Assembly: GCA_905250025.1 (NCBI GenBank)
Contig: CAJNOJ010000105.1
Coordinates: forward strand, 248,001 to 312,000
DNA length: 64,000 bases
Reading direction: 5' to 3'
Origin: Adineta ricciae
Lineage: Eukaryota; Rotifera; Eurotatoria; Adinetida; Adinetidae
In this document: positions 3,969-50,927 of the stretch, piece by piece
Numbering within the stretch: position 1 is the first letter of the stretch
Layout: each line of letters begins with the position of its first letter
Translations under genes and position numbers: made by a program
Notes under the pieces: model-generated
Databases searched by the model: none
What the model was told of the DNA's origin: nothing
The model's input: only the letters and a program-made list of their open reading frames with translations

Positions 3969-6909
3969 CTAGACGCGTTGCTTTCTCTTACGCTTTTCAC
4001 GCCAATTCTTGATCTGTTTATGAAAATATTCCATGTATACAGACGACGGCATAATGTGGATGACGAACGTTAACGTTGTTGGAACAAACGAAATGTAATA
4101 ACTCGTTACATTTAACCATGCATTTCGAGATTCTTTCACACATCGAAGTAATGATGAGATTGCAAGAAAAGGAACAGTTAAAGTTACAAGCAGCAGTGCA
4201 CTTGTAAATAAAACCTTGTGCTGGTACAACTGATCCACAAGATGTTGACCTTCGGATTTATACTTTCGAGCTTTTGCTCTTTCACGAGCCATCACGATAA
4301 CGATGTAAATAGCTGCGAAAATGTTAATGCAAAACGGTGCTCCTATGTGAATAAATGCAACGGTCATTGAATAGTAGTATAAAGTTGGTGAATAAAGAGT
4401 AAAACACCAAAATCGATTTTCCTCAGCATCATAATGTAAGTCACGAGATATACTTTCATATATACTCACGCTTGCAACTACCAACGGTAGTAAACGGACA
4501 AATCTTCGGGCGCGTTTTAGGCTCGAATGTTTGTTGAAGTTTGATGAATTTCTTGCAGCCATTGTACGTTCAATCGATATAGCAGCATGCAACCAATAAT
4601 TCATCGAGGAAAGTAGTCTAAGGATGGGTTCGATCAATAAGCACCCGTAACGAAGAACATTATATTGTGTTATTAAACTCATTTGGGTGATTATAACGAA
4701 CCAAAGTTTTGTCATCAACATTGCAAAAGTAAAGAATGATGTGACCGATAATGTCAAAAGATAGACACTACATCCAATTGTACGATGTTTTGGCCGGTAA
4801 AAGACGGCAAACGAAAGAGCACTATTGACCAAACCAACAGTAAATATGGCAAAGGTGAAAAATATGCTTGCTTTGATTATTGGCGACTGTCCATTCATTC
4901 CAATATTCGGTCGAATTTCGTAGCGAAAAAGATCATCGAGCGTCAGACCGATTCCTCTCGCATAGAACTGACATCGATCGCCAAAGTAACAGTCATTGCA
5001 TTCACATATGGTTGTAACAGGGCAATATGGATGGTTTTGTAAGCATTGTCCACCATTGAGACAATGAACATTTTCTTGACATTCAAACTTAGGCTTATGA
5101 TCGAATGGAAAACAATTGGCATGACGATCCGTCGTGCATAGACACATGTAAGATTCGTCAAAGAAACATTTCAGATTGGGATGATGTTGACATAGTGTAT
5201 GATAATGTTTGACTCGTTGGATTCTGGGTAATTTAGTTTGTTCGAAGGAGAGTAGTTGATGAACAGGTGGGCAACGACGGGTTGAATCAACTGTAGCTGA
5301 AATGTTAAATACTTGTGATTGTTGAATAACAGCCAAATAATAGTTACGGTTGATAAGAACATAAACCATTTGAAAAGGATATGCTATATACACTGTTAGA
5401 CTCTTATCACTTATACTTAGTTTTTTCAATATGATATCTCGCGGACGTCTTGAATAAAAATTAAGAGAGCGATAAATGTAAATTATTAAATAAGCTGACA
5501 CGTCTAAACTGTGGAAGGAAATTCTCAATATTGATTTGGGATATTCACATCGGGCGCCTTGAAACTGTTCGGAGCACAAGCATTGATAATTTTCATCGAT
5601 CATATGCTCACCTGTAACTATACATTGACCATTATTTCCACAATAATTTGCTGGACATGAATGTTTCAGCAGACAACGATTGCCGAATTTTTCGAGAGGA
5701 CAAATACAGATCGATCGATTATGCACTTGACCAACACAAACCGAGTCTGACGAACAGTCACTACAGGTGGTTTGAATATGGCATCGAGCACCGGACCACC
5801 CTGGATTACATCGACAGAAGTACTTTTGTTCGTTGGCATATTTCATGCAGATACCATGACTGCATTTCAAAGAGCAAGAGCTAGGACTCATTCTTCTCTG
5901 GCTATCCAGCGTTAGCAAAATATTTAGTCGATTCACCGGAAGAAACAGAAATGGAACTCTGTACAACCAACTAGCAAGATATTGCGTAGAGTTCTTGTCA
6001 TACGCATCAATATGAATGCTGTAGGTTTTGGAAATATTTTTTGGTTTGGATGAATATAATAAATACTTATCGAATGGATTTTTGCAGCTACTTTGAGAGA
6101 CATACAGGAATTGGCCATATGAGTGTATGTCTTGTAAGTCGTCATCAACTAGTTTCGCGAAAATAACGTATGTGCGGTTCATGTTCACAGATGATAGTGT
6201 TAGTGTCAAACTTACACGTTGGCTTTGATATTCGCAACGATCTCCATAATAATTCGGCGGACACATACATCTCGCAGTTTGAGTATCGTTTCCTAGCCAA
6301 AGATGAACGGGCAAACCACGTACACAATGCAAAGATGAGGAGTAAACGCTTGTCGGTCGTCGTGCCGGTTCAACATTAGGAATGATGACTTTCTTTTCAA
6401 CTGCTGGATACACTTCAGACGTTTCTGAAGGAAATGGAGCACGTTCTAATCTAATAGCATGGCAAATATTATCTTGGATTTTACTGAGATCATGGTCCAT
6501 CCATTCAACGCATACGTCTGGGTCGTATAGTTTGCTCGTTGAGTCACAAAGTGTAAACGGATTGACACATGTTCTCCCATCCAAACAACTAAATCTGTAT
6601 AATGATCCGCTTTCTGCATTCGTACCTTGACATAATTGTGGTTCATCTAATCCTCCAACACAATCAACCGTCCCATCCCGAACCTTATCACCTGCTAAAC
6701 ATATCATCGTATAATTGAGTGGTGACATACATTCAAACAAACCACGAGAGCAGTTCGATGCTCGACACGCTTCTTCATCTTCACCATTACGACAATTCCA
6801 GAATCCATGACACCGACTATACACATTACTACATGGCCAATGCTCACAGTCAGTCTCGTCCGTGTGACCATGACCGTCGACCACTTTAGCTGAAACATCC
6901 ACAAACCCA
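3969..6909 (-). CDS. LDLa/EGF/7TM receptor, C-terminal two thirds (copy of gene Y, cut by gap)
   Basis: About 980 codons without introns, truncated at its 5' end by the N at 6910. In order: LDLa modules (WPCSNVYSRCHGFWNCRNGEDEEAC and the next), an EGF-like module (CMCPPNYYGDRCEY), a beta-rich region, further EGF modules (CRCNPGWSGARCHI, CICPLEKFGNRCLL, CLCSEQFQGARCEY), a last EGF (CECNDCYFGDRCQF) and a seven-helix domain over roughly the last 300 residues. The helix III end reads AAISIERT, in place of the DRY box of rhodopsin-like receptors. The tail is short and basic. It resembles the gene at 20903-25372 throughout, but keeps its own sequence (CVNPFTLCDSTSKLYDPDV) where that gene carries a converted tract. 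Confidence 0.85.
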
Positions 6910-6910
6910 N
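6910..6910. other. Single-N contig join
   Basis: One N fuses coding sequence of a receptor (left) to the 3' coding part of the SIR2-NACHT gene (right). Both genes are cut here, so the adjacency is an assembly product and should not be read as a fusion. Confidence 0.9.
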
Positions 6911-9900
6911 ATCAGAGACAAATATACTTTACAATAACTGGAAAAGTTCAAATTCCATTTTAACTGTTTGTCTTGAAGTTTTTGGTAAATGACTGAGAGA
7001 TATTCGTTCATATGCGATGAACAGCGTGCAATCGGATCTTTCAAGGTGAATATCAACTGTTCAATTCGATTGGCCAATGCTTTGGTAAGTGCTGTTTCTT
7101 TTTCTTTTAATATCGTACTGATAAAATCGAATTCTCCCAAGGCAATTGAGGCAACAAGTGCATCGATCTGTTCGGTTGTGTTTAACTTGTCCATTTTCAG
7201 TTCTTTTCGTAACCTCTTCATTAAATCTTTTGGAGATTTCTTTTCGAGTAGCAATTCAAGAATTCGTGGTGTCAGAAATGAATCTTTATAAATTTTCCTC
7301 TCATCAAAGATTGGTTGAACATGCCAATATTGTTTCGCAGGATAATTTTCCAAATACCTTGCCATGTTATACTTTGTCTGATCTTTTCCCCAAATATCTT
7401 GATAGTAGAAGAGAAATGGCATCATTTCGTTATCACTCAATTCGAGAAACTGTTCAATTTCATGATATTCCACAATCGCTTTTCCACTCTGGTGATTGTC
7501 GTCGCCACCGTAAAGTGCACTGATCAAACTTATCCAGTTATGATCATACCTGATCTGCTGCGTTAGTGCTGCGTTTTTCAATAATGTCGTGCGGAATTTC
7601 AGCTGCAATTCAATCGCATCGTTTTTTATCTCTGTCGAATAGAATCGTAGACAGGAATCGACCGGCCAATTCCAAGTAGCTGAGTCATTATATAAGTTGA
7701 TCAAAAATCTCTGGTGGAATTTCGAATTGAACCAGTTCAGGTGATAGATGATATTCGCACAAGGTGCAATGTTTTCATCGCATTCGAGTTGCTCGAGAAA
7801 CCATTCGAGAGTTGTCTGGTAGGATGTTCGTTTTAGTTTTAAAAAATACGAATGGATCAACTTTTGGTGTTCATCTAGCCGAGAGAAACCCGAGAGATTT
7901 GTGTAATCGGATAGTAAAAGATCGGCCAATCGACGAATTAAGTCGCATTCCGCGCTTTCCGATAGAAAAAACATATCGTTTAAAGAATCGATAATCACGA
8001 ACGGAACGATACGAGTCGGAGATGTTTGACTAGGTAATAGTCGTTCGATAATATTATGAAATAGCTGATTGTTTTGATCTTGTTTACTTAAGATTCCGAA
8101 TGTCATGCTGAGAGGTACTCGCCAGTTGGGAATATCGATCTTTCGTTGAATATTGTCGTAGATAACCTCTTCGGAGCGTTGTATTCCATTGCAATAAATC
8201 AGACTTTTCGCAGCAAGATATTCCTGAAACGTTCGATGAATGAAACGAAAACTATCATGGCCAAATTCGTTCAATAAGCCAACTTTATACTTGAAGATTT
8301 CTACTAGTTGAGAGATGAAATCAGTTGCATCCGTTGCTGCCATCGATTTCTGAATTAGTTCTTTCAGAACTTTCTCCGACAGGCCTTCGACTTTTTCATG
8401 AAGATATTCGGCGATTTGTTGTAAAATCGACCACAGCATTACTGAACTCAGTTGCAATTGCTCATGAACGGATGATTGAACTAGATGTTCGATCATTTTG
8501 CCAATCGCTTGCTCATATAAGTCGATTCTTTTCTCGGGTAATTTTTCGTTCGATTGATGGTAAACAGCGGCGATGACGCTAGCAAGTTGTGGATTGATAG
8601 CTAATTGAAAAATATCCTGATTTTTGGTGATGTCATCGTACAATTGATCGATTTTATATTCTCTTTGTTCGGACGAAACCTTTCGAATGTATTTCGTGTA
8701 AGAATTGCAGAATAATTTCAAAGATTCATTCGACATGTCTTCGATTGTTAGTCTTGGAATATAGAAATTGATATCTTCGAAGTAGTTTCCTTCAATGCGA
8801 CTTGTGATGATAAACCGATTGCCGAAAGTCGGATGTTTCGTATTGCAGATTTCTTTTTGTTCATAAGACGAAAAGGCTAATTTATTCGTTTTGAAATCGT
8901 ATATGATATTCCGTTCTAATAAGGTATTGATATCTTTCATAAGATCAGCTCGATCAACATGAACAGGAACTTCGTCTAATCCTTCGAAGACAACCAAAAC
9001 ATCTCCATGTAGGAGCGAATCACTGAGCAATGCTGATAAATCTTTCCTTTCGTCGTCGGTGAAGACACTCGCATTGAATGTAGCATGTTCGTGCAAAAAT
9101 TCGAGTAAACTTTGTTTCTGTCCGTTGAAATTCTCTTTCAATTGATCAACATATTTCCAAATCGGGATTAAAATCGGGATTTTTTCTTGTGACGTGTCTT
9201 CTTCATCGAACAACATATTCTGCATGCCTAAACATTGCCGAGCCATGTTTGTGACTAACCATTTCGATATGGTTGTTTTGCCTGAGCCGGGATGGCCAAG
9301 AATAATAAAATGTTTGAACTCGTTAAACGCTTGCCGAATTCGGTATTGTCGAACTTCTTTCAGGTTGTTTCGGAAGAGGATATTTCGTTTTAAATTTGAA
9401 ATTTTATCTTTGATGACATACCTCTCAGTCAAAGAAAAGATTTTGTCATCGGCGAGAAGAACGTTTAACCATTGATCGATCATCAAATCTCGATAGATCG
9501 TTTGTGGATTATACGCATGGTGTTGAAAAATCGCTCGAAGAATTTTTCGTTTTTCATTGTCAGTAAAGAATTCCTTTGATGACACGCGACGTTGGAATTC
9601 TTCGGTCATGTCTACCGTTTTCATTGCTTTTATCGACGGATGTGTCGGATCAAATTTCAACTCAACATAAACGCTTTCTAGTGGTAAATGAAGATCATGA
9701 TTTAAACATCCGAAGATTGAAACATGACCGTATTCTTCCAGGAGATAATTGAGATATTTCTGACGAACGTGTTCTCTTCGAATGGATAATGAGTGATTTT
9801 CAAGGCGGAATGTTGATAAAGGGGAAAGATTTTTGAGAAAGGATAGTATATCTTCGAAAGTATTTCCGCAAGGGATTTCTACGAAATTTTCGAGAATTGA

Positions 9901-10620
9901 ACATTGAACAGTTGAGCGAATAAGTTTGTAAATTGCCGGTCGATTTATAACAGAAAGATAGAAGATCCACTTTAAAATATTTGAGAAATCTGGATCGAAT
10001 TGCTGAGTGCCGTAACCAATGAAAAGTAACGTTTTACCTTGAACAAGCTTTAAGAACTTCATTCGTATGATTTTATCCTGAAAAAGCTGATCACTGTTCA
10101 GTACGATACTGCTCGCATATTGATACTGCCCGTGCAGATGCAAAATATGATGGACGTCTAGGCTCTGCAACGACGGATCAGTCCGATATTGCTCCCAAGT
10201 TAACGATTTTTTGTGTAGTACATCTTCAAGAAGTGAATCGTAATTTGTCGTCACAATTGGACATCGGAAATCAGCCAAGGCTTGTATCAATTCTGGTTTG
10301 TGTGGTAATAATTTTCCGATTGTGTCATTTAACCAACATTGGTAAGCATCGGTGTGTTCTTGCATATAGGGATTTGCTCGGTTAATGATTCGGTTGTATT
10401 CGTCTATGTCAGTAGTAGGATCATTCAACTTTTGAATGTCTTCATTGAAATCTTCATCTGAAATCTTTGATAATTCGTGAAGTGCATGTTGGACTAGTAC
10501 TTTCGAATATGCAACTTGCATGTCGTCATTTGCTGTATAAGCAGATACATCCGAACCAACAAATATGACTAATTTATTCGCAATAAGATCCTTCTTGATG
10601 TTTTCAATATTGTCGAACAT
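6911..10620 (-). CDS. SIR2-NACHT STAND/NLR-like protein (3' end missing)
   Basis: About 1236 intronless codons, open at the gap. Residues ~5-220 form a SIR2-like (SIR2_2) domain: VIFVGSDVS near the start, TTNYDS at ~122 and HLHG at ~162 (the Asn and His that are catalytic in SIR2 NADases), then FIGYG at ~200. A NACHT ATPase follows: Walker A GHPGSGKTT with Lys ~448, Walker B VVFEGLDE at ~548, ITSR at ~603 and the winged-helix motif FIHRTFQEYLAA at ~790. The remaining ~400 residues look helical, with no LRR, WD or TPR signature visible. The start at 10620 (MFDNIENIKKD) is preferred over 10752 because the extension is low-complexity and a pyrimidine-rich stretch ending in CAG sits 10 bases upstream of the ATG. 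The family predicts ligand-triggered oligomerisation and NAD cleavage. Domain order matches bacterial SIR2-STAND (Avs5-type) defence proteins. Confidence 0.85.
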
Positions 10621-11972
10621 CTTGATAGTCTGAAAATGAAATGTGACTGTGTTTCTTCCTTGGAAGAACGGAAAGACTCTTTCTTTCTTTTCATTATTTG
10701 CACAAGAAAGAACATATTTTTTCCAACATTCAAAAGAAGAAACGCATGTCATGACGTTTATTGTTTATTGGAAGAAAAAAAAACGTTGCAATATTCTACT
10801 GTAGATCGATATTTTGTTTGTAAATACTATTGAATAAAATACTAATCTGCTACAATAAATAGAAGAAAAAGTCCATGTCGCTGAAAGTGAGAACATCATT
10901 TCTAGAATTCACTCATGAAATACTGGTTAGTCAACGCCTGTAAGTGGACTAGATAACCAAAATGATACGTTTATCATTCCTTTTTTTTATACAAACAAAT
11001 ATCTACACGTCAATAAAAACTGAACTATGGATTAACAAAAATACAGGAAACACTGATATGAAACCTGCATACTCGCCGACGACCTCAAGATGTGTATCAG
11101 CAACGTTCAGCGAATACTGGTGGGCCAGCATTTCTAACTATATGGCCGAACCAAAACAAAATCATTCTGTCTACAACCTTGTGCAATATCCCGGCTTTAA
11201 GAATGACATCATATATTCCACTCGATACAAGTCTCATGTCAGTTACGTATATGATAATGATACATAAAATTGATGAGATTTGTCACTACGAGGAAGTGGA
11301 AAGTCATATGTCAGATGACTTGAATAATAACCGTTAACATTAAGAAATGAAGTTATTTCATCATCGAACATGCAGCGTTTATAGTAATACAATTGCATAT
11401 TCAACAAGAAGATGATGAGCTTCACTGTTAACATTGATCATTAGAAGCACTAAATGATTTTCTAAATGGCGTCTCGATCGATAAATTGTGGCTAGATATT
11501 GTAGAGCATATGTTGAGTGGATGAAGATAAGAAATAGAGGTATTGGCAAAAGTATTGAATCGCTTTTAAGCACATATTTTCTGTTCGAATGAAATGCAGA
11601 TTTCATATCTTGTTTTGCAACGTCAATATTTTCTTCTCTTCGTCAATTTACGTCACTCTTATTCATTCACATGTTTGAAACAACACACAATCACCCATAA
11701 GAAAAAAACTAAGAACCAAATGACTCGTTCGATGTGTCTCCACAGCACTGTAGATAATATTCGGATATTGATGAGTTGAATTACGTATTTGAATGATTTT
11801 CAAATTTCGAATGAAATGAAAATATGTAGTATGTTAGTGGTTAATTTAGTGTCACCATTTTAAACAGAACATTAGCAGAGAGAACTTGTGTTCTACATTT
11901 CCTAGCAACAGCATGAGTCGACTGATAGTCTTTATCAGATACAAACAATAAACAAATGCATTATCTGCGCGA
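10621..11972. other. Intergenic, no supported gene
   Basis: About 1.35 kb between divergent genes. A 101-codon plus frame at 10962-11267 begins with a hydrophobic stretch but has no recognisable domain, no splice support and no second copy to compare. Left unannotated. Confidence 0.4.
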
Positions 11973-12029: not shown

Positions 12030-12359
12030 ATGAAATTCACAATGACTCTTATGTTTATGGTTATTCTTTTGAATATTTCTCTGGTACTGGGTGATTTTTC
12101 CTGCAATTGTGTATGCTGCAAAGGGCGTCTTCTGACAACTTGTCTTTCCTTGAATTCTCAAATGAATCCATGTCAAAATGACACTTGTCTCAATTATTGT
12201 CGACAAAAATATCCAACACTTTGTCCAGCAGATATTGCATTAGGTACATCCTACGGAACTTGTCGTGTTACTGCCTTAGCGTCACATTATAAAGCAAGTG
12301 GTCTAATAACCATTTTATTTATGACAGTTATAGCCTTTTTTAAACAAATAACTTTTTAA
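12030..12359 (+). CDS. Small secreted or GPI-anchored Cys-rich protein
   Basis: Single exon of 109 codons. It has an N-terminal signal peptide (MKFTMTLMFMVILLNISLVLG), a mature core with ten cysteines (CNCVCCK near the start, then spaced Cys to CRVTA) and a C-terminal hydrophobic segment (ITILFMTVIAFF) that could be a GPI-attachment signal or a membrane tail. It has a good TATA box. No known family is recognised. Probably exported to the cell surface; the disulphide-rich core suggests a small extracellular domain. Confidence 0.65.
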   Translation: MKFTMTLMFMVILLNISLVLGDFSCNCVCCKGRLLTTCLSLNSQMNPCQNDTCLNYCRQKYPTLCPADIALGTSYGTCRVTALASHYKASGLITILFMTVIAFFKQITF

Positions 12360-13415: not shown

Positions 13416-16400
13416 TCAATAGCCGAATAGTTGCCGCCATAATTTCATGGAATTGATAAATTCTTTCTTGTATAATGGAGATGGCAGAACATAGATGACG
13501 AAGATTAATGTCGAAGGGATAAACGACATGTAGTAGCTGAAAATGTACAGCAACGAACTTTGAGAGGCTTTCACACAGCGAAATAATAATGAAATGATGA
13601 CGAGAGGAAATGTTAAAACAATTAACATTATCGGACTGATAATCAAGTGTTTCTGCTGACAAAGTTGCTCTTTAAAATGTTGATAACGAGTTTTATGCGT
13701 GCGAGCTGTTGCTTTTTGACGTGCAATCGTGTAAATAACGTAGAGCGCCGTCACAATATTGATAAAGAATGGTGCCATCAAATGAATAAATAGAACTATC
13801 GTTGTATATATGTACAACGATGATGAATAAAGAGTAAAACACCAAAATCGATCCTCTTCGACATCATGAAATAAGTCGCGAGAAACGCTTTCATACATAT
13901 TCGAACTCATAACTACCAAAGGTAAGAAAATAACTACCCATCGAGCAGCGTAGATGCTAGCAGATTTACTGAAATATATTCCTTTCCAAACAGTCACAGC
14001 ACGTTCAATCGATATAGCAGCATTCAGCCAATTGTTCATCCAAGAGAAAATTTTAAGCAAAGGTTCGACTAATAAGCAACCGTAACGAAGGACGGTATAG
14101 TTTGTTGCTACGTTCATTTGTGTAAGTAAGACAAACCAAAATTTCAGCATCAGTATTGCAATCGTAAGTAGAGAAGTGATCGACAATGTTAGAAGATAGA
14201 TACCACATCCCACTGTACGGGTATCACAGCGCAAAAATGTGGCCAGCGAAAGCATACTATTAACTGAACCTGTGAGAAATAAAACCAGCGTTAAAAATAT
14301 ACTGAATTTAACTATTTGTGACTGACTACTCATATGCATATCTGATCGAATTTCGTAGCGAAAAAGATCATCGAGCGTCAGACCGATCCCTTTCGCATAG
14401 AACTGACATCGATCTCCAAAGTAACAGTCATTGCATTCACATATAGTCGTTGCAGGGCATTGTGGGTGGTCTTGTAAGCATTGTCCACCATTGAGACAAT
14501 GAACATTTTCTTGACATTCAAAGTTAGGCTTATGATCGAATGGAAAACAATTGGCATGACGATCCGTTGTGCATAGACACATATACAATTCGTCAAAGAA
14601 ACAATTCAGACTGGGATGTTGTTGACATAGTGTATGATAATGTTTGACTTGTTGGATTCTGGGTAATTTAGTTTGTTCGGAAGAGAGTAGTTGATGAACA
14701 GGTGGGCAACGACGGGTTGAATCAACTGTAGCTGAAATGTTGAACATACTTGACTGCTGTGAAACGACCAAGTAATAGTTATGATTGCTTAAGATAAAGA
14801 CTATTTGAAATACATGATGCGAATACAATGTAACATTGTTTTGCATCTTTGTCAACTTTTTTAGCAACGTCTGTTGTGGTAATGGTGGTTCTGAATTAAC
14901 AAATGAGTAGATGTACGCTATTAAATATGATGAAATATCCCTATTATTGAAAACTATATGTAATCTTGCTTTACGATGCTCACACCTTTTCCCTCGAAAT
15001 GCATCAGCGCACAGACATTCATAACTACCATCGTTCATTTGTTCGTCTGTAACGACACATTGACCATTGTTTTCGCAGTAATTTGCTGGACATGAATGTT
15101 TCAGTAGACAGCGACTGCCGAATTTTCCGAGAGGACAAATACAGATCGATCGATTATGCACTTGACCAACACATAGCGAAGCCGGCGAACAATCAGTGCA
15201 TTTGATAGGTATGTGACATCGAGCTCCACTCCAACCGCTATCGCATTGACAAAATGTCGTTTCTACATTGATATACTTCATACAGATGCCATGTACACAT
15301 TCCGGAGAGCAGAAACCGGTGTTGAATGTTCGATTGGAATCCAACGTGAGCAGAGCAGCCATTCGATTGACCGGTAGGAAATTGAATAAAACTCTAAAAT
15401 ACCAGCTTGCAATGTACTCTAGTGACATGCTATCATAAGCATCGATATGAATACTATAGTTTTTCGAAGGATCTTTCGGTGTTGTTGAATACAAGAGATA
15501 TTTGTCAAACGGTTGACCGCACGTTGCTTTTGAAACGTAAATGATTTGTTCATAAGAGTGTACTTGCTGCCGATCATGATCGTCATCAATCAGTTTAATA
15601 AAAATAGTATATATACCGTATGTGCTAACAGATGATAATGTTAAGGTCAAACTGACGCGCTGATTTTGATACTGACAAAGGTTCCCATAGTAATTCGGAG
15701 GACACATGCAGATCGTAGTGAAATTCTTATCCCCTAACCAGAGACGAATGAGCAAGCCACGAATGCATCGTGACAGTGAGTTGTAAGTCTTAAGCAGTTT
15801 TTCTTTTGCAACATCGATCGTGTTGAACATTGTATCTTCCACCAGTGGATAAATTGGACTTTCTTCTAATGTAAATTGAACATGTTTTAATCTACCAAAA
15901 TGACAAAGAAAGTTTCGTATCTTTGTAAGATTATAACCAATCCATTCCGTGCATAGCTCTTCCTCATTAACTAATTCGCCATCCGAGTCACATAATACGT
16001 AAGGTTCAATACACGTTCGCCCATCCAAACAACTAAATCGGTACAATCTTTCGCTTTGTGCATTCGTACTTTGACATAATTGTGGTTCATCTAATCCTCC
16101 AACACAATCAACTGTCCCATCTCGAACTTTATCAGCTGCTAAACATATCATCGTATAGTTGAGTGGTGACATACATTCAAATAAACCACGAGAGCAGTTC
16201 GATGCTCGACACGCTTCTTCATCTTCACCATTACGACAATTCCAGAAACCATCGCATCGGCTATACACATTGCTACATGGCCAATGCTCACAATCAGTCT
16301 CATCCGTATGACCATGACGATCGAACACTTCAACTGAAACATCGACAGCGCCATCACATATCTGGTTGAACAAGATACTGTCGATCGTTTTCGTCTCATT

Positions 16401-17876
16401 TTCACCCAAAGGACAACCCAATCGTTGAAGTATGGGCGATCGACATCGACTTTCGTTCGCACACTTGAACCGATGTGGCTGATCAAGGAAACAACTGAGT
16501 TCGTGATCTTCCTCATCATCGTTCAGATAGCAGTCAGTGATGTTATCAGCTATTCGATGTTTCGAGATGTATTTCGAAGAGTTTCGGCACTGATACAGTG
16601 ATGAATGTTTTTCATCTGTGTACCGAGTAGCACAACCAACAAAGTATGGTTTGATGACACGGATCATGTGTTTCCAACCATGATACTTTGTGTTTTGTGA
16701 TAGTCCCATGTGATGAGCATGACGACATGTATGAGATCTGTGGCGAAATGTTGGCGAAAGATAAGTGCACAACTGTTCGTCATAGCAAATATAGTCGGGT
16801 AATAGGATGGAGTCATTGGTCATTTCAAATATTTGTTTAGGTTGGTAGAGAAAGTGAACATGACCGAACAAGACAGGACTGATGGGGAACTGAATGAGAT
16901 GATCACATGCACGAAGATGAGAAAGATGAATGGTTGTGCCGTTACAGAATGTTGGATTGATAGGATGCATTAGTCGAGTGAGACAAACCATCGCCAACCA
17001 ACAATCATCAGGTAAGGATCCTTGTACAGTCAATGATTCGAACAGCAAGAGATGTCGTCCGTTGATACATTCATCGAAATCATCGACACATTGTCCATCG
17101 CCACATGAGAATTTCTTCTGACCAGGTGGACATGCGACTTCTTCACATTGGAATATACCTGCTGGTGAATGAGAACTCGGGCAAAGCGAATCAGTCCATG
17201 TATCGGATTGATCTAGACATTCTGCCGTGATTTGTTCAAGTGTCTGATGATAGTGTGGAATACATTGTCCGTTGTGGCAGCGATATTCATTCGGCTCACA
17301 CTCGTTGATTTCCAGATCGAAACATGCAGCTTCGTCAACACCATTGTTCAGACAGTCGATTCGGCCGTCGCATACTTCTCGCCAGTCGAGACAAAGAGCT
17401 GCTCCACCTCGATCACAGTCCAATAGAACATAACACGTGTGTCCAGTAGCGAGAGCAGTGGACTCGATTTCGTCGGATTCCAAAGAATACTGACATCGAG
17501 ATCCAAACCATGGTGGTGTACAGTTATAGAATAGTTGATTAGCTTGAAGAGATGTGTTGTGATGATCGAGATAGTCTTGATACTGTTCGGCGAGATCGAT
17601 GGAGGTCGACCAATGGAAAATGTCATAGGCAGTGACATTGATTTGAAATAGTTGGTGAAATGTATAATTTTGATCGCGGGTATTGATGAAATCTGCTATC
17701 GGCATGAGATCAACACCAGTCGTCGATCGAAAATAATATTCAGTTTTTGTAATAAATCCTGTACGTGTTATATAGTAATATAAACAGTCATACTGTGATC
17801 GAGAACTGACATAGAAATCGAAATTGCATTCAACTGTAAAACACAGTACAATTGTCAACCATGTCTGACTCACCAT
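13416..17876 (-). CDS. LDLa/EGF/7TM receptor, gene X (complete)
   Basis: A single 1486-codon exon. Signal peptide MVSQTWLTIVLCFTVECN; EGF-like CTPPWFGSRC; LDLa modules (CDGRIDCLNNGVDEA; CHNGQCIPHYH; CGDGQCVDDFDEC; CDGFWNCRNGEDEEAC; VRDGTVDCVGGLDEPQLC); EGF modules (CMCPPNYYGNLCQY, CQCDSGWSGARCHI, CICPLGKFGSRCLL, CLCADAFRGKRCEH, CECNDCYFGDRCQF); then seven helices from ~1185 to ~1470, with AAISIERA at the helix III end. The frame is open 25 codons further to 17951, but the homologous copy has a stop in that extension, so the signal-peptide ATG is chosen. A plasma-membrane receptor of the LDLa/EGF-GPCR kind; ligand and G protein unknown. Its 5' third is identical at DNA level to gene Y (see findings). 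Confidence 0.88.
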   Translation of the reverse strand: MVSQTWLTIVLCFTVECNFDFYVSSRSQYDCLYYYITRTGFITKTEYYFRSTTGVDLMPIADFINTRDQNYTFHQLFQINVTAYDIFHWSTSIDLAEQYQDYLDHHNTSLQANQLFYNCTPPWFGSRCQYSLESDEIESTALATGHTCYVLLDCDRGGAALCLDWREVCDGRIDCLNNGVDEAACFDLEINECEPNEYRCHNGQCIPHYHQTLEQITAECLDQSDTWTDSLCPSSHSPAGIFQCEEVACPPGQKKFSCGDGQCVDDFDECINGRHLLLFESLTVQGSLPDDCWLAMVCLTRLMHPINPTFCNGTTIHLSHLRACDHLIQFPISPVLFGHVHFLYQPKQIFEMTNDSILLPDYICYDEQLCTYLSPTFRHRSHTCRHAHHMGLSQNTKYHGWKHMIRVIKPYFVGCATRYTDEKHSSLYQCRNSSKYISKHRIADNITDCYLNDDEEDHELSCFLDQPHRFKCANESRCRSPILQRLGCPLGENETKTIDSILFNQICDGAVDVSVEVFDRHGHTDETDCEHWPCSNVYSRCDGFWNCRNGEDEEACRASNCSRGLFECMSPLNYTMICLAADKVRDGTVDCVGGLDEPQLCQSTNAQSERLYRFSCLDGRTCIEPYVLCDSDGELVNEEELCTEWIGYNLTKIRNFLCHFGRLKHVQFTLEESPIYPLVEDTMFNTIDVAKEKLLKTYNSLSRCIRGLLIRLWLGDKNFTTICMCPPNYYGNLCQYQNQRVSLTLTLSSVSTYGIYTIFIKLIDDDHDRQQVHSYEQIIYVSKATCGQPFDKYLLYSTTPKDPSKNYSIHIDAYDSMSLEYIASWYFRVLFNFLPVNRMAALLTLDSNRTFNTGFCSPECVHGICMKYINVETTFCQCDSGWSGARCHIPIKCTDCSPASLCVGQVHNRSICICPLGKFGSRCLLKHSCPANYCENNGQCVVTDEQMNDGSYECLCADAFRGKRCEHRKARLHIVFNNRDISSYLIAYIYSFVNSEPPLPQQTLLKKLTKMQNNVTLYSHHVFQIVFILSNHNYYLVVSQQSSMFNISATVDSTRRCPPVHQLLSSEQTKLPRIQQVKHYHTLCQQHPSLNCFFDELYMCLCTTDRHANCFPFDHKPNFECQENVHCLNGGQCLQDHPQCPATTICECNDCYFGDRCQFYAKGIGLTLDDLFRYEIRSDMHMSSQSQIVKFSIFLTLVLFLTGSVNSMLSLATFLRCDTRTVGCGIYLLTLSITSLLTIAILMLKFWFVLLTQMNVATNYTVLRYGCLLVEPLLKIFSWMNNWLNAAISIERAVTVWKGIYFSKSASIYAARWVVIFLPLVVMSSNMYESVSRDLFHDVEEDRFWCFTLYSSSLYIYTTIVLFIHLMAPFFINIVTALYVIYTIARQKATARTHKTRYQHFKEQLCQQKHLIISPIMLIVLTFPLVIISLLFRCVKASQSSLLYIFSYYMSFIPSTLIFVIYVLPSPLYKKEFINSMKLWRQLFGY
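15940..17678. repeat. Conversion tract, donor-like copy (identical to 23433-25171)
   Basis: From 15940 to 17678 no difference from 23433-25171 was seen on reading (constant offset 7493), while sequence on both sides diverges strongly. The tract lies wholly inside coding sequence and spans the LDLa region of both receptors. Confidence 0.8.
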
Positions 17877-18651
17877 TTCTTTTTTAGAAAATAATCCGTC
17901 TTCTTTGCAAGCTCGAAGCATAGCCTTATAATAATTAAGCACAATGAACACGTAGAGTCAATTTTAATAGCCTTGACACCGGTTCTCTTTCTCTGTCGTC
18001 ATATTAATTCATCTGAATAGCATCAATCTTGCACAAGGACGTCAATTTGTAAAGAATATTCTTCTGAATTTATAAGTGGGTAAACTAACGACACTTTTCC
18101 TTTAAGTGGTGAAAGATCGAAGCAATAAGAAATTTTGTACATAATATTTTTGTTCTTTACCGCAACAAAATGACGCATAATGTCTCCTTTTTTTCTCATC
18201 GAAAGTAACAGAAATCAATAAAACACAAATCTTAGAAAGTTGCGTCACTAAAGAAATTCATTCTTTGGGAATTTCTGTCGTCTGTGAAATACTTTCTACT
18301 TTATTCAATAATTTCAGATTCCCAGTGAGTGAATCTCATTATTGACCCATCTTTCCCAAATGGTCACGTTTCACTGAATGGAAACACTCCAAATCTCAAT
18401 AGTCAAACACATTACGTAAGTGTATATTATTTCATACATTAAACAAAATGAACTTGATACTGTCATTGAACAGTTTATTATAATAAAATATAGCGCATTT
18501 GAGTTCTTTCTTAGAAATCGAGCTTTTATGTCATTTTCACGAGATAAGTAATTAGTACAAAAAATACTATGAGATTAATAACAGTTATTCGTAATTAAAA
18601 AATATCTGTATCTAACCAAAACATATTTAAAAACACATTCTGTTCTTTCAA
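17877..18651. other. Intergenic, no gene seen
   Basis: Counterpart of 947-1722 with small indels. It presumably includes the gene X promoter. No conserved frame. Confidence 0.5.
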
Positions 18652-20902: not shown

Positions 20903-23900
20903 CTAGACGTATTGATTTCTCTTACACTTTCCACGCCATTTTTTGATCTGTTTATGAAAATATTCCATGTACACAGACGACGGCATAATATGGATGACGA
21001 ACGTTAACGTTGTTGGAACAAACGAAATGTAATAACTTGTTACATTTAACCATGCATTTCGAGATTCTTTCACACATCGAAGTAATGATGAGATTGCAAG
21101 AAAAGGAACAGTTAAAACTACAAGCATCAGTGCACTTGTAAATAAAACCTTGTGATGGTACAATTGATCTACAAAATGTTGACCTTCAGATTTATACTTT
21201 CGAGCTTTTGCTCTTTCACGAGCCATTACGATAACGATGTAAATAGCCGCGAAAAAGTTAATGCAAAACGGTGCCCCTATGTGAATAAATGCAACAGTCA
21301 TTGTATAGTAGTATAAAATTGATGAATAAAGAGTAAAACACCAAAAACGATTTTCCTCAGCATCATAATGTAAGTCACGAGATATACTTTCATATATACT
21401 CACGCCTGCAACTACCAACGGTAGTGAAAACACAAATCTTTGGGCGCGTTTAAGACTCGAATGTTTGTTGAAGCTTGATGAATTTCTTGCAGCCATTGTA
21501 CGTTCAATCGATATAGCAGCATGCAACCAATAATTCATCGAGGAAAATAATCTAAGTATAGGTTCGATCAATAAGCACCCGTAACGAAGAACACTATATT
21601 GTGTTATTAAATTCATTTGGGTGATTATAACAAACCAAAGTTTTGCCATTAATATTGCAAAAGTAAAGAATGATGTGACCGATAATGTCAAAAGATAGAC
21701 ACTACATCCAATTGTACGATGTTTTCGCCGGTAAAAGACAGCAAACGAAAGAACACTATTGACCAGACCAACAGTAAATATGGCAAAGGTGAAAAATATG
21801 CTTGCTTTGATTATTGGCGACTGTCCACTCATTTCAATATTCGGTCGAATTTCGTAGCGAAAAAGATCATCAAGCGTCAGACCGATCCCTTTCGCATAGA
21901 ACTGACATCGATCTCCAAAGTAACAGTCATTGCATTCACATACGGTTGTAACAGGACAATATGGATGGTTTTGTAAGCATTGTCCACCATTGAGACAATG
22001 AACATTTTCTTGACATTCAAAGTTAGGCTTATGATTGAATGGAAAACAATGGGCATGACGATCCGTCGTGCATAGACACATGTACGATTCGTCAAAGAAA
22101 CAATTCAGACTGGGATGTTGTTGACATAGTGTATGATAATGTTTGACTCGTTGGATTCTGGGTAATCTAGTTTGTCCGGAAGAGAGTAGTTGATGAACAG
22201 GTGGGCAACGACGGGTTGAATCAACTGTAGCTGAAATGTTAAATACTTGTGATTGTTGAATGACAGCCAAATAATAGTTACGGTTGATAAGGACATAAAC
22301 CATTTGAAAAGGAGATGCTATATGTACTGTTAGATTCTTATCACTTATACTTAGTCTTTTCAGTATGATAGCATGTGGGTGTCTTGGATATAAATAAAGA
22401 GACTGATAAATGTAAATTATCAAATAAGTTGACAGGTCTAAACTGTGGAAGGAAATCCTCAATATTGATTTGGGATATTCACATCGGGCGCCTTGAAATT
22501 GTTCAGAACATAAGCATTGATAATTTTCATTGATCATATGCTCACCTGTAACTATACATTGACCATTATTTTCACAATAATTTGCTGGACATGAATGTTT
22601 CAGTAGACAACGATTACCGAATTTTCCGAGAGGACAAATACAGATCGATCGATTATGGATTTGACCAACACAAAGCGAGTCTGACGAACAGTCACTACAG
22701 TTGATTTGAATATGGCATCGAGCACCGGACCACCCTGGATTACATCGGCAGAAGTATTTTTCTTCGTTGTTATATTTCATGCAGATACCATGATTGCATT
22801 TCAAAGAGCAAGAGCTAGGACTCATTGCTCTTCGGCTGTCCAGCGTTAGCAAAATATTTAGTCGATTAATCGGAAGGAACAGAAATGGAACTCTGTAAAA
22901 CCAACTAGCAAGGTATTGCGTAGAGTTCTTGTCATACGCATCAATATGAATGCTGTAGGTTTTTGAAATATTTTTTGGTCTGGAAGAATATAATAGATAC
23001 CTATCGAACGGATCTTTGCAACTACTTTGAGAGACATACAGGAATTGGTCATATGATTGTATGTCCTGCAAGTCGTCATCAACTAGTTTCGTGAAAATAA
23101 TGTATGTGTGGTACATGTTCACAGATGATGGTGTTAGCACCAAACTTACGCGTTGACTTTGATATTCGCAACGATCTCCATAATAATTCGGCGGGCACAT
23201 ACACCTCGCAGTTTGAGTATCGTTTCCTAGCCAAACATGAATGGGCAAGCCACGTACACAATGCAGAGATAAGGAGTACACGCTTATCGGCCTTCGGGCC
23301 GGTTCAATATTAGGAATGATGACTTTCTTTTCAGGTGCTGGATACACTTCAGACGTTTCTAGAGGAAATGGAGCGCGTTCTAATCCAATAGCATGGCAAA
23401 TATTATCTTGGATTATACTGAGATCATAGTCGATCCATTCCGTGCATAGCTCTTCCTCATTAACTAATTCGCCATCCGAGTCACATAATACGTAAGGTTC
23501 AATACACGTTCGCCCATCCAAACAACTAAATCGGTACAATCTTTCGCTTTGTGCATTCGTACTTTGACATAATTGTGGTTCATCTAATCCTCCAACACAA
23601 TCAACTGTCCCATCTCGAACTTTATCAGCTGCTAAACATATCATCGTATAGTTGAGTGGTGACATACATTCAAATAAACCACGAGAGCAGTTCGATGCTC
23701 GACACGCTTCTTCATCTTCACCATTACGACAATTCCAGAAACCATCGCATCGGCTATACACATTGCTACATGGCCAATGCTCACAATCAGTCTCATCCGT
23801 ATGACCATGACGATCGAACACTTCAACTGAAACATCGACAGCGCCATCACATATCTGGTTGAACAAGATACTGTCGATCGTTTTCGTCTCATTTTCACCC

Positions 23901-25372
23901 AAAGGACAACCCAATCGTTGAAGTATGGGCGATCGACATCGACTTTCGTTCGCACACTTGAACCGATGTGGCTGATCAAGGAAACAACTGAGTTCGTGAT
24001 CTTCCTCATCATCGTTCAGATAGCAGTCAGTGATGTTATCAGCTATTCGATGTTTCGAGATGTATTTCGAAGAGTTTCGGCACTGATACAGTGATGAATG
24101 TTTTTCATCTGTGTACCGAGTAGCACAACCAACAAAGTATGGTTTGATGACACGGATCATGTGTTTCCAACCATGATACTTTGTGTTTTGTGATAGTCCC
24201 ATGTGATGAGCATGACGACATGTATGAGATCTGTGGCGAAATGTTGGCGAAAGATAAGTGCACAACTGTTCGTCATAGCAAATATAGTCGGGTAATAGGA
24301 TGGAGTCATTGGTCATTTCAAATATTTGTTTAGGTTGGTAGAGAAAGTGAACATGACCGAACAAGACAGGACTGATGGGGAACTGAATGAGATGATCACA
24401 TGCACGAAGATGAGAAAGATGAATGGTTGTGCCGTTACAGAATGTTGGATTGATAGGATGCATTAGTCGAGTGAGACAAACCATCGCCAACCAACAATCA
24501 TCAGGTAAGGATCCTTGTACAGTCAATGATTCGAACAGCAAGAGATGTCGTCCGTTGATACATTCATCGAAATCATCGACACATTGTCCATCGCCACATG
24601 AGAATTTCTTCTGACCAGGTGGACATGCGACTTCTTCACATTGGAATATACCTGCTGGTGAATGAGAACTCGGGCAAAGCGAATCAGTCCATGTATCGGA
24701 TTGATCTAGACATTCTGCCGTGATTTGTTCAAGTGTCTGATGATAGTGTGGAATACATTGTCCGTTGTGGCAGCGATATTCATTCGGCTCACACTCGTTG
24801 ATTTCCAGATCGAAACATGCAGCTTCGTCAACACCATTGTTCAGACAGTCGATTCGGCCGTCGCATACTTCTCGCCAGTCGAGACAAAGAGCTGCTCCAC
24901 CTCGATCACAGTCCAATAGAACATAACACGTGTGTCCAGTAGCGAGAGCAGTGGACTCGATTTCGTCGGATTCCAAAGAATACTGACATCGAGATCCAAA
25001 CCATGGTGGTGTACAGTTATAGAATAGTTGATTAGCTTGAAGAGATGTGTTGTGATGATCGAGATAGTCTTGATACTGTTCGGCGAGATCGATGGAGGTC
25101 GACCAATGGAAAATGTCATAGGCAGTGACATTGATTTGAAATAGTTGGTGAAATGTATAATTTTGATCGCGAGTATTGATGAAATCTGATATCGGCATGA
25201 GATCAACATCAGTCGTCGATCGAGAACAATATTCTATTTTCACTGGTAGTAAAAACTCCGTTGAATAAGAATAGTATATACAGTCGTACTGAAGATAACT
25301 ATTCGTGTAAAAGTTAGAATTAGACTCGGTTCTTGTCGACAAAAGAAATAAGTAGTAGAAAGCAGTCAACAT
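20903..25372 (-). CDS. LDLa/EGF/7TM receptor, gene Y (complete, mosaic)
   Basis: A single 1489-codon exon with signal peptide MLTAFYYLFLLSTRTES. The domain order matches gene X: EGF-like, LDLa cluster, EGF modules, seven helices over about the last 300 residues (AAISIERT at helix III), and a short basic tail ending KWRGKCKRNQYV. The first ~67 residues are gene Y type, as in the fragment at 36372-36778. Roughly residues 68-647 are identical to gene X. From WIDYDLSIIQDN onward it is again gene Y type, close to 3969-6909. The gene is therefore a natural chimera or an assembly chimera, still fully open. Expected at the plasma membrane. Confidence 0.88.
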   Translation of the reverse strand: MLTAFYYLFLLSTRTESNSNFYTNSYLQYDCIYYSYSTEFLLPVKIEYCSRSTTDVDLMPISDFINTRDQNYTFHQLFQINVTAYDIFHWSTSIDLAEQYQDYLDHHNTSLQANQLFYNCTPPWFGSRCQYSLESDEIESTALATGHTCYVLLDCDRGGAALCLDWREVCDGRIDCLNNGVDEAACFDLEINECEPNEYRCHNGQCIPHYHQTLEQITAECLDQSDTWTDSLCPSSHSPAGIFQCEEVACPPGQKKFSCGDGQCVDDFDECINGRHLLLFESLTVQGSLPDDCWLAMVCLTRLMHPINPTFCNGTTIHLSHLRACDHLIQFPISPVLFGHVHFLYQPKQIFEMTNDSILLPDYICYDEQLCTYLSPTFRHRSHTCRHAHHMGLSQNTKYHGWKHMIRVIKPYFVGCATRYTDEKHSSLYQCRNSSKYISKHRIADNITDCYLNDDEEDHELSCFLDQPHRFKCANESRCRSPILQRLGCPLGENETKTIDSILFNQICDGAVDVSVEVFDRHGHTDETDCEHWPCSNVYSRCDGFWNCRNGEDEEACRASNCSRGLFECMSPLNYTMICLAADKVRDGTVDCVGGLDEPQLCQSTNAQSERLYRFSCLDGRTCIEPYVLCDSDGELVNEEELCTEWIDYDLSIIQDNICHAIGLERAPFPLETSEVYPAPEKKVIIPNIEPARRPISVYSLSLHCVRGLPIHVWLGNDTQTARCMCPPNYYGDRCEYQSQRVSLVLTPSSVNMYHTYIIFTKLVDDDLQDIQSYDQFLYVSQSSCKDPFDRYLLYSSRPKNISKTYSIHIDAYDKNSTQYLASWFYRVPFLFLPINRLNILLTLDSRRAMSPSSCSLKCNHGICMKYNNEEKYFCRCNPGWSGARCHIQINCSDCSSDSLCVGQIHNRSICICPLGKFGNRCLLKHSCPANYCENNGQCIVTGEHMINENYQCLCSEQFQGARCEYPKSILRISFHSLDLSTYLIIYIYQSLYLYPRHPHAIILKRLSISDKNLTVHIASPFQMVYVLINRNYYLAVIQQSQVFNISATVDSTRRCPPVHQLLSSGQTRLPRIQRVKHYHTLCQQHPSLNCFFDESYMCLCTTDRHAHCFPFNHKPNFECQENVHCLNGGQCLQNHPYCPVTTVCECNDCYFGDRCQFYAKGIGLTLDDLFRYEIRPNIEMSGQSPIIKASIFFTFAIFTVGLVNSVLSFAVFYRRKHRTIGCSVYLLTLSVTSFFTFAILMAKLWFVIITQMNLITQYSVLRYGCLLIEPILRLFSSMNYWLHAAISIERTMAARNSSSFNKHSSLKRAQRFVFSLPLVVAGVSIYESISRDLHYDAEENRFWCFTLYSSILYYYTMTVAFIHIGAPFCINFFAAIYIVIVMARERAKARKYKSEGQHFVDQLYHHKVLFTSALMLVVLTVPFLAISSLLRCVKESRNAWLNVTSYYISFVPTTLTFVIHIMPSSVYMEYFHKQIKKWRGKCKRNQYV
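23433..25171. repeat. Conversion tract, recipient-like copy (identical to 15940-17678)
   Basis: Tract of 1739 bases identical to gene X. The other gene Y copies (3969-6909 and 36372-36778) differ here, so gene X is the likely donor. Confidence 0.8.
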
Positions 25373-31204: not shown

Positions 31205-31736
31205 ATTGTCGTTATTTGTGACCAATTATAAAATCTCCTTGTGTATGTGCCCTTTTATGACGGTAAGTATAAGTCAAACGAATATTGAGTGTACACATAC
31301 GAAAGAAAAAGAAAGAAAACGATATGACCAAATTCAAACTCGCAAAAGCTAGGATTATCATTTAATTATATCGACGTCAATGTAAGTATTTTATTCCCAC
31401 TTATAATCAACACATGTTATCATTGCGTATATACACAGATTCCAGCAAGCATCGGACTTCAGTTTGTCTACACTGTTGTTCCTTCCATTCATGACTAGAA
31501 TCATCTTCTTTCAAAAGTAGTGTGGTTGAGAAAATGTTTGCTCTGAACCCTTACTCGCCGTTCACATTCTTGTATTGCATAACTGTTTACAATTTATCTG
31601 TGATTCACTCATCGATATTAAATGGCAAACAAATCAATGACGACCCGAATGCAATCATTCGGGATTGATACAAAGGTAAACACGTGGTTTTTTTTTTGTT
31701 TTTGTGCGATTATTTTACATATCATCGAATTTTGCA
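31205..31736. other. Bidirectional intergenic region
   Basis: About 530 bases between the divergent PLC and helical-bundle genes, so it should contain both promoters. A short ATG frame at 31622 ends in a GTAAAC donor, but its ATG is lost (ATA) in the second copy, so it is not treated as coding. Confidence 0.45.
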
Positions 31737-32835
31737 ATGTCCTATCTCGAAACCATCGCTGCTGCTACTTCGATACCCCTGGAAACGTTGTCTGTTGCGG
31801 CGACCACGGTACCAAAATCAGTTCCTGTCTTGAGTAATATTTTTAAAATTTCGACGGATATTCGCGAGACGACGGAACGAGTAGAAACGAACAAAACACA
31901 ATGTATGCAATTAAGTGAACGTATCGATACATTGATTGGATTTTTAGCGCAACGCGATCTGTCGGAACGTTTAAATGAAGCACTGCATATCGCACTTCAT
32001 CGCTTTGAAACATTTTTGCAACGCTGTTTAGAATTTATCAGTACGTTCTTAGAAACATCTTGGCTGAAACGTGTTGTGAACAATAAAGATTATGAGCGGA
32101 AATTTCAAGACTTAAATCGGGAATTAACCCAATATTCTAATGATCTTAATTTCGGTATCGGATTAAGTAACATGAAAATCAAGAAGATTCATCAAGACGA
32201 CGAAGAACAAGAAGTTCAGACAAAGGATATTGTTCAAGACAAAACTAAGAAAAACAATAACGAACAAATCAGCATTGATGATAATTTACAAATAAAAATA
32301 AACATGAAAGAACCTTCGATGGCCATACGAAGTCTTCCTATAAGAGTGAACAATATTAATGTTTCTTCTTCGAATGACCGTTCTTTTCTACTTATAGACT
32401 ACACCGGAGCCTGTTGTGGATGTTCCGCCAATACAGAATTTAATTTTTGAATCTGGCCTGTGGAACTATGGATACAAACAATTCAATCAATTCTTTGGTC
32501 CGTTTCGACAGCAAGTCACTTTTAATCGTCAAACAAAAACAGTACACGGTTACGGAAGAGACAATGTCGGGCAGTATATACTAAACGGAACATTTTCAGA
32601 AAGAACTGGACAAATCAGAATGACGCAAACATATCAGGTAACGTTTTGCTTTAAACGTAGTTTGTCTTACAACTATATTTAGTTGGGTACGGGAGATCCG
32701 AAACTTAATCTTGGACATCAAGATCTTCTGCAATTTAATTTGAATTCATCACGCAACGTATTCGAAGGGGTGGCCTATTCAAATGTTCAAGGAAATTACG
32801 TTCCAGGAGCGTTGGTCGAAATGTGGCCTGCCTAA
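31737..32835 (+). CDS. MLKL-NTD/HeLo-like helical-bundle protein with unrecognised C-terminal domain (copy A)
   Basis: Three exons: 31737-32345, 32398-32637 and 32683-32835, with introns of 52 and 45 bases, both in phase 0; 333 residues. Residues ~10-150 form a predicted four-helix bundle whose pattern (VPVLSNIFK..., NKTQC..LSERID.LIGFL, ...FLETSWLKRVVNNKDYERKFQDLNRELTQYSNDLNFGI) resembles the MLKL N-terminal/HeLo-like domains of membrane-targeting cell-death proteins and immune-receptor adaptors. A charged linker (DDEEQEVQTKDIVQDKTKK) follows. The last ~130 residues form a compact domain (SGLWNYGYKQFNQFFGPF; GYGRDNVGQYILNGTFS; TYQLGTGDPKLNLGHQ) that I cannot assign. The start is the second ATG (MSYLETIAAATS). 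No kinase or protease part is present. A cell-death or membrane role is inference. Confidence 0.7.
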
Positions 32836-50812: not shown

Positions 50813-50927
50813 TCAATTAGCGAACTATTTCCTTTTTGACCTCATTCTTCTTCATCCACAAATAAATATATGAAATGAATGATTTTCACGGTACTTTTTT
50901 GACACATCTACCGGCGTATTTGAAAGA
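50707..50927. repeat. 221-base contig-end overlap (first copy)
   Basis: Identical to 50929-51149, separated by the N at 50928. It duplicates the end of the membrane protein gene, so the partial coding sequence after the N is an artefact. Confidence 0.9.

What the first reader, a model, noticed from the sequence alone, without database searches (positions are those of the whole stretch)
6911..10620. SIR2-NACHT STAND protein in an animal genome, matching the layout of bacterial antiphage SIR2-STAND proteins
An intronless gene combines an N-terminal SIR2-like domain, with the catalytic Asn (TTNYD) and His (HLHG) retained, and a complete NACHT ATPase (GHPGSGKTT, VVFEGLDE, FIHRTFQEYLAA). Known animal NLRs normally use CARD, PYD or death-family effectors. 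A SIR2 effector on a STAND ATPase is the design of prokaryotic Avs5-type defence proteins, where activation depletes NAD. The C-terminal sensor is not a recognisable LRR, WD or TPR array. This could be a horizontally acquired or anciently shared NAD-depleting immune receptor.
Basis: partly seen in the sequence, partly recalled or inferred. Interest (0 to 1): 0.88.

Follow-up and report, generated by a model that had tools for sequence, protein, structure and literature searches.

The report
Bacterial-style SIR2 immune switch in rotifers
A microscopic animal, the bdelloid rotifer Adineta ricciae, carries a small family of giant proteins built like bacterial virus-defence switches (an NAD-handling SIR2 part on an ATP-driven sensor), which looks like a bacterial immune device taken up by an animal and since altered at its active site.

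Summary
Confirmed: window 6913-10620 (minus strand) is a 1,236-codon open frame with a SIR2_2 domain and a NACHT/nSTAND3 ATPase; its model's best PDB match is the bacterial SIR2-STAND protein EfAvs5. The genome is Adineta ricciae, with six SIR2-NACHT genes in three pairs; relatives occur in other Adineta and Rotaria, so contamination is excluded. A one-base gap (N at 6910) cuts this copy; full relatives have about 2,200 aa and a long helical C-terminus, so the 'sensor' is mostly missing, not unrecognisable. NACHT plus C-terminus is shared with bacterial proteins that carry CHAT, caspase, TIR or trypsin effectors; its NACHT does not group with bacterial SIR2-NACHT proteins (AU p 0.005, test chosen after a first tree). 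So it looks like a SIR2 effector on another bacterial chassis. Caveat on catalysis: Asn is kept in 49 of 49 family members, but His only in 28 of 49, and all 8 distinct Adineta copies have Asp in the NAD-loop GxG. SIR2 remains under purifying selection (dN/dS 0.18-0.31 in three pairs). Best reading: an intracellular SIR2-STAND receptor of bacterial type. NADase activity, immune role and donor are unproven.

The parts
6913..10620 (-). SIR2-NACHT gene, 1,236 codons, 3' end lost at the gap
9796..10620 (-). SIR2_2 domain, residues 1-275
10543..10560 (-). NAD-binding loop, VGSDVS instead of GxGxS
10237..10251 (-). TTNYD with the catalytic-type Asn126
   Evidence: Asn in 49 of 49 family members
10129..10140 (-). 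HLHG with His163
   Evidence: His in 28 of 49 family members
9346..9795 (-). conserved linker, residues 276-425 (LKFDPTHPSIKAMK)
   Evidence: alignment
8161..9345 (-). NACHT/nSTAND3 ATPase and following helical part, residues 426-820
9271..9297 (-). Walker A GHPGSGKTT
   Evidence: GKT[TS] in 49 of 49 rows
8971..8994 (-). Walker B region VVFEGLDE
   Evidence: G[LF]DE[VI]P in 49 of 49 rows
8209..8244 (-). FIHRTFQEYLAA motif
6913..8160 (-). start of the C-terminal helical solenoid, residues 821-1236; about 970 further residues are present in full relatives
   Evidence: model pLDDT 86.5; only weak HEAT/ARM-type matches
6910..6910 (.). single N, assembly joint that cuts this gene and the neighbouring 7TM gene
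10630..10641 (-). splice-acceptor-like TTTCATTTTCAG nine bases before the ATG
   Evidence: sequence; a CAG of this kind stands close before the ATG in 4 of the 6 gene copies; function inferred

Best explanation
The gene encodes an intracellular SIR2-STAND switch of bacterial type, kept and multiplied in bdelloid rotifers. Shown: a SIR2_2 domain, a conserved linker, an intact NACHT/nSTAND3 ATPase and, in complete relatives, about 1,400 residues after the ATPase; membership of a family found in Adineta and Rotaria; NACHT and C-terminus homologous to bacterial effector-NACHT proteins. Inferred: a ligand (microbial or damage-derived) binds the C-terminal solenoid, the ATPase exchanges nucleotide and oligomerises, and the clustered SIR2 domains act on NAD+, most likely hydrolysing it and so stopping or killing the infected cell. 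In this copy the changed NAD loop (GSDVS) may weaken or alter that reaction. Inferred history: uptake from bacteria before Adineta and Rotaria split, with the SIR2 effector sitting on a CHAT/trypsin-type NACHT chassis.
For: Domains and motifs. Foldseek top match EfAvs5, E 7.4e-11; SIR2 part like DSR2/ThsA/KomC, ATPase part like NOD2/NLRP3. Same Pfam pair as PaAvs5 (PMC12931631 passages). Six copies in the genome, and the genome's only six SIR2_2 matches. Named relatives in A. vaga (18.1-Mb contig), A. steineri, A. ricciae and five Rotaria. Bacterial proteins with the same NACHT and C-terminus and other effectors. NACHT trees place the rotifer clade among bacterial long-C-terminus proteins. 18 of 21 bacterial SIR2 domains score 99-167 bits with the family profile against 83 for human FAM118B. 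Purifying selection on SIR2, dN/dS 0.18, 0.19, 0.31.
Against: GxD in the NAD loop of all 8 distinct Adineta copies, His lost in 21 of 49 family members. No expression, enzyme or infection data. Among solved structures the best sequence match of the family is human FAM118B (7.4e-23), ahead of KomC (1.3e-10) and ThsA (1.3e-4), and 3 of 21 bacterial SIR2 domains score below it. No SIR2-bearing ortholog was found in 1,413 sampled prokaryote genomes of five phyla; the host of P0080, the most distant full-length relative, is unknown. A EukProt Death-NACHT protein and two non-SIR2 bdelloid NACHT proteins lie among the bacterial rows, so an older eukaryotic history of this NACHT type is possible. Long stem (2.7-2.9 changes per site) and quick tree method.
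Confidence: 0.55

Rival explanations
1. The receptor is real, but in Adineta its SIR2 domain no longer hydrolyses NAD+: it binds NAD or an ADP-ribose-like ligand, or serves as a polymerising scaffold, possibly co-assembling with active paralogs.
For: GxD in 8 of 8 distinct Adineta copies; Tyr for His in C98/C239, A. steineri P0067 and A. vaga P0072; at least 10 changes of the His state and 11 of the Gly state on a family tree built without SIR2 columns, while Asn126 stays in 49 of 49 and SIR2 stays constrained. FAM118A and FAM118B show NAD processing when mixed (PMC12700824 passages).
Against: Asn126, Asp128 and His163 are intact in the window copy. PaAvs5-1 naturally has Asn for the His and is active, so this position can vary (PMC12931631 section 11).
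Confidence: 0.3
2. Vertical animal origin: a metazoan FAM118-like SIR2_2 gene fused to an animal NACHT gene.
For: FAM118B is the best sequence match of the family profile in the PDB (7.4e-23); animals have both gene types; bdelloids and a EukProt species have non-SIR2 NACHT proteins of this kind.
Against: 18 of 21 bacterial SIR2 domains fit the profile better than FAM118B; A. ricciae has no SIR2_2 match outside this family (six-frame, exon by exon); the long C-terminus is shared with bacterial CHAT/caspase/TIR proteins; no other named animal was found in three searches, each of which scored only about 8,000 candidates.
Confidence: 0.1
3. A STAND switch used for something other than immunity, for example NAD or stress control around desiccation.
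For: No infection data; STAND proteins have other roles too (general knowledge).
Against: The layout is that of defence proteins, and the family is multiplied and diverse, as receptor families are.
Confidence: 0.12
4. Bacterial contamination or an assembly artefact.
For: A single-N joint cuts the gene and the tandem copy has such joints too.
Against: Host-like composition (GC3 0.381 against 0.33-0.35 in three neighbouring 7TM frames); six copies on four contigs; relatives in other bdelloid assemblies, one on an 18.1-Mb A. vaga contig.
Confidence: 0.01

Closest known systems
Avs5 (AVAST type 5; EfAvs5, PaAvs5), bacterial SIR2-STAND antiphage proteins
   Same: N-terminal PF13289, central nSTAND3 PF20720, C-terminal repeats; top Foldseek match
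   Different: About 2,200 aa in full members against 833 residues in the EfAvs5 chain; no Avs5 match by sequence; C-terminus shared with CHAT/TIR/caspase-NACHT proteins; an animal gene family
Bacterial CHAT-, caspase-, TIR- and trypsin-NACHT proteins with a long C-terminus (e.g. Phormidium tenue P0112, Anabaena cylindrica P0114)
   Same: NACHT and long C-terminal region homologous (identities 22-28%)
   Different: Other N-terminal effectors
Bacterial SIR2_2-NACHT proteins, several with an FGE-sulfatase C-terminus (L024 Akkermansia MAG, P0032 Planctomycetota, L003 Minicystis)
   Same: SIR2_2 followed by NACHT
   Different: NACHT groups elsewhere (p-AU 0.0049); C-terminus differs where it was scanned
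FAM118A/B (SIRal), vertebrate SIR2_2 proteins
   Same: SIR2_2 domain; best PDB match by sequence
   Different: No STAND or repeat domain in the matched chains of 298-371 aa
SAMD9 family
   Same: An animal protein with a variant Sir2-like domain and a STAND-like NTPase (PMC5445408, abstract and passages)
   Different: AlbA_2, TPR and OB domains and a GGT/S P-loop; none of these here

Membership tests
[quoted passage not shown]
STAND/NACHT ATPases | nucleotide-dependent oligomerisation | not testable with these tools
   needs biochemistry
SIR2_2 (PF13289) | domain match over the curated cut-off | tested here: met
   54 bits against 24.5
SIR2_2 NADases | catalytic Asn (TTNxD) and HG His | tested here: met
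   Asn126 and His163 present
SIR2_2 NADases | GxGxS NAD-binding loop | tested here: not met
   GSDVS; Asp in 8 of 8 distinct Adineta copies
Avs5 | PF13289 then nSTAND3 PF20720 | tested here: met
   definition from PMC12931631 passages
Avs5 | C-terminal TPR/Sel1/PPR-type repeats | tested here: inconclusive
   helical solenoid, no repeat family in Pfam; weak HEAT/ARM-like matches
Avs5 | sequence match to known Avs5 | tested here: inconclusive
   no Avs5 chain at E up to 0.01; no family named Avs5 among the 4 PADLOC hits; that PADLOC holds such a model was not checked
Avs5 | protection against phages | not testable with these tools
   animal gene, no assay
Classical animal NLRs | CARD, PYD or death-fold effector and LRRs | tested here: not met
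   none among the 18 Pfam families listed for the window protein, nor among the 5 for the full-length copy L107
SAMD9 family | AlbA_2, TPR and OB domains, GGT/S P-loop | tested here: not met
   GKTT P-loop, no such domains listed
FAM118 | stand-alone SIR2_2 protein of the vertebrate clade | tested here: not met
   multidomain; tree with FAM118 not made
Bacterial effector-NACHT proteins with long C-terminus | homologous NACHT and C-terminal region | tested here: met
   on full-length relatives: P0080 against P0110-P0114 at E 8e-100 to 2e-80, P0087; the window holds only the first 416 residues after residue 820

The most novel reading that the evidence does not exclude
Bdelloids run a two-class SIR2-STAND immune network derived from bacteria: paralogs with intact pockets (Gly, Asn and His; 18 of 49 sequences) act as NADases, while paralogs with changed pockets (GxD, His to Tyr or Phe) act as regulatory or sensing partners that co-assemble with them, so that an animal has turned one bacterial suicide switch into a combinatorial receptor system.
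Probability: 0.2. Interest if true: 0.88.

Novelty: new variant of a known kind. Interest (0 to 1): 0.66.

Why it matters
SIR2-STAND defence is described from prokaryotes; an animal lineage with a conserved, multiplied family of such proteins would show that a whole effector-switch-sensor machine, not just one domain, can be adopted by an animal. Bdelloids are long-term asexuals with much foreign DNA, and infection experiments with RNA sequencing exist for A. ricciae (PMC11258130, passages), so the idea that borrowed bacterial immunity supports asexual animals becomes directly testable. The repeated changes of the NAD pocket in a family that keeps its Asn and stays under purifying selection are also a natural mutant series for SIR2 chemistry.

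Tried and rejected
Contamination: rejected. Classical sirtuin: no such model among the 18 Pfam families listed. Avs5 membership proper: not shown. NCBIfam's nearest model was the NACHT antiphage protein EruA, 32 bits against a cut-off of 1000, not pursued. Vertical FAM118 origin: less likely, but FAM118 was not placed in a tree. A bacterial owner for P0080: no SIR2-bearing ortholog in 395 + 292 + 240 + 235 + 251 sampled genomes of five phyla; the single match, in the second set, was the CHAT protein of G002, the genome used as centre. The thresholds were strict (1e-30, then 1e-40), and four of the five answers carry the tool's warning that an empty answer shows nothing. Viral contigs: 3 weak matches, not followed. 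Intronlessness as proof of transfer: dropped, because the neighbouring 7TM frames of 1,489-1,511 codons are single ORFs too. Literature: 'SIR2 NACHT rotifer' 0 papers; 'bdelloid NACHT' 10; 'bdelloid NOD-like receptor' 5; 'SIR2 NACHT horizontal gene transfer metazoa' 3; listings read, none is about this by title or abstract start. The library lacks most subscription papers. 'SIRim' returned 1,707 papers, the 20 listed unrelated. The Science 2025 SIRal paper was seen only as cited in PMC12700824.

Rows dropped and weak points: the NACHT tree used 57 of 66 rows; 8 lacked a P-loop by my pattern, five of them bacterial SIR2 proteins (P0033, P0035, P0089, P0127, P0128), and one was too short. The reduced tree and AU test used 34 rows, chosen after seeing the first tree, so the p value is not from a pre-named test; the bacterial SIR2-NACHT side held 5 rows. 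In one search the two non-SIR2 bdelloid NACHT proteins stood next to the rotifer SIR2 clade (88), they did not. In one search three rows printed as 'bac' (P0008, P0020, P0023) are rotifer fragments without the SIR2 motif columns; true bacterial rows are 17 (recounted). One search counted those gap rows as His-less; one search is the corrected count.

Full report

Whose genome. The window lies in a 130.5-Mb assembly. Three of its contigs have exactly the lengths of contigs that carry named Adineta ricciae proteins: C98 358,056 (P0075), C208 184,454 (P0076), C154 251,781 (P0124), and over the first 290 residues C98 and C208b are identical to P0075 and P0076, and the tandem copy to the A. ricciae protein P0085. 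The genome holds six SIR2-NACHT genes in three pairs: window and tandem copy; C208 a/b (94% to each other); C98/C239 (94%); 47-57% between pairs. The genome's six PF13289 matches are these six genes. Named relatives are in A. vaga, A. steineri and five Rotaria; no other named animal with the SIR2 form appeared in three protein searches, each of which scored only the roughly 8,000 candidates sharing most words.

Origin. Searching from P0080, a full-length relative (2,242 aa, 36%), gives bacterial proteins with homologous NACHT and C-terminus but with CHAT (Phormidium), caspase (Anabaena), TIR or metallophosphatase in place of SIR2; trypsin occurs too. Bacterial SIR2_2-NACHT proteins also exist, several with an FGE-sulfatase C-terminus. 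In NACHT trees the rotifer family with P0080 is one clade (100*) among the long-C-terminus bacterial proteins and apart from the SIR2-NACHT-FGE group; holding it together with five bacterial SIR2-NACHT rows costs 25 log units (p-AU 0.0049). These were quick searches, the stem is 2.7-2.9 changes per site, and the rows were chosen after the first tree. The SIR2 domain, scored with one profile, fits bacterial SIR2_2 domains (18 of 21 at 99-167 bits, 3 at 25-52) mostly better than human FAM118B (83 bits), which is however the best match among solved structures. I read this as a SIR2 effector on a bacterial CHAT/trypsin-type chassis, taken up before Adineta and Rotaria split; where the fusion happened is open. 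Against it: P0080's host is unknown and no SIR2-bearing ortholog was found in 1,413 sampled prokaryote genomes; a EukProt Death-NACHT protein and two non-SIR2 bdelloid NACHT proteins sit among the bacterial rows; composition is host-like, so any transfer is old.

The active site. Of 49 family members with a SIR2 stretch, Asn126 and Asp128 are kept in 49, His163 in 28 (Tyr 17, Phe 3, Gln 1), and the second Gly of GxGxS in 28 of 46 with letters there; 18 of 49 have Gly, Asn and His. Of 17 bacterial rows, 17 have the His, and 16 of 16 with letters have the Gly. On a tree of 49 rows made from linker and NACHT only, the His state changes at least 10 times and the Gly state at least 11 (quick tree, so a few of these may be tree errors). 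All 8 distinct Adineta copies (six in this genome, P0067, P0072) have Asp at the Gly position; the window pair and the C208 pair have His, C98/C239, P0067 and P0072 have Tyr. The SIR2 domain is nevertheless under purifying selection in the three A. ricciae pairs (dN/dS 0.18, 0.19, 0.31); NACHT gives 0.11 and 0.10 in the two full pairs and 0.46 on the 123 codons available for the window pair, other segments 0.15-0.43. In PaAvs5-1 the motifs GAGxS and TTNxD are described as conserved, Asn110 is essential, and the HG His is naturally Asn, with Ala or Gln inactive (PMC12931631 section 11, read in full). So the His is replaceable in at least one Avs5, but Tyr and the GxD loop are untested, and I hold the NADase step for this copy as inference.

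Mechanism. Best supported: an autoinhibited STAND switch, opened by a ligand on the C-terminal solenoid, oligomerising with ATP and bringing SIR2 domains together to consume NAD+. The layout and conserved ATPase motifs are shown; ligand, oligomerisation, NAD+ hydrolysis and cell death are inferred from Avs5 and NLRs. Four of the six genes have an acceptor-like CAG shortly before the ATG, which suggests spliced transcripts (trans-splicing in bdelloids is recalled, from no call); expression was not tested.

Comparison with the known. By layout it works like Avs5; I do not file it as Avs5, since neither a sequence match nor the C-terminal repeats were established, and the NAD loop departs from that of active relatives. 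It is not a classical NLR and not SAMD9. The searched library gave no description of this family. I rate it a new variant of a known kind.

Noticed in passing
whole genome G000, e.g. C398:47550-48014, C449, C422, C148: A large NACHT repertoire: 40 matches to PF05729, 38 over the cut-off; the 17 best lie in open frames of 918-1,712 aa, unlike the SIR2 family.
   Followed up: partly
L111-L121: A second set of very long single-ORF NACHT genes (several of 2,098-2,340 aa) whose first 250 or so residues match no Pfam effector in the 9 that were scanned.
   Followed up: partly
2-946, 3969-6902, 13416-17951, 20903-25372 (-): Tandem LDLa/EGF-type receptors that look like seven-helix receptors (by eye), single ORFs of up to 1,511 codons, duplicated together with the SIR2-NACHT gene.
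   Followed up: no
6910, 36371, 49229, 50928, 59911: Single-N joints; two of them sit inside perfect-looking 222-base tandem duplications (49007-49450, 50706-51150) and two cut genes, so single Ns in this assembly mark unreliable joins.
   Followed up: partly
28242-32450 versus 39635-43914: Two near-identical gene blocks about 11.4 kb apart, alike in three encoded proteins.
   Followed up: no
P0125 (EukProt): A 2,661-aa eukaryotic protein with a Death domain on a NACHT that falls among the bacterial long-C-terminus proteins, a possible second eukaryotic use of the same chassis.
   Followed up: partly
L024 and P0031-P0033: Bacterial SIR2_2-NACHT proteins end in an FGE-sulfatase-type domain, a fold that I recall as a target of diversity-generating retroelements; NACHT-linked lectin targets are named in PMC10907252 (passages).
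   Followed up: no
12030-12359 (+): A 109-aa ORF with a signal-like start and many cysteines, upstream of and divergent from the SIR2-NACHT gene.
   Followed up: no
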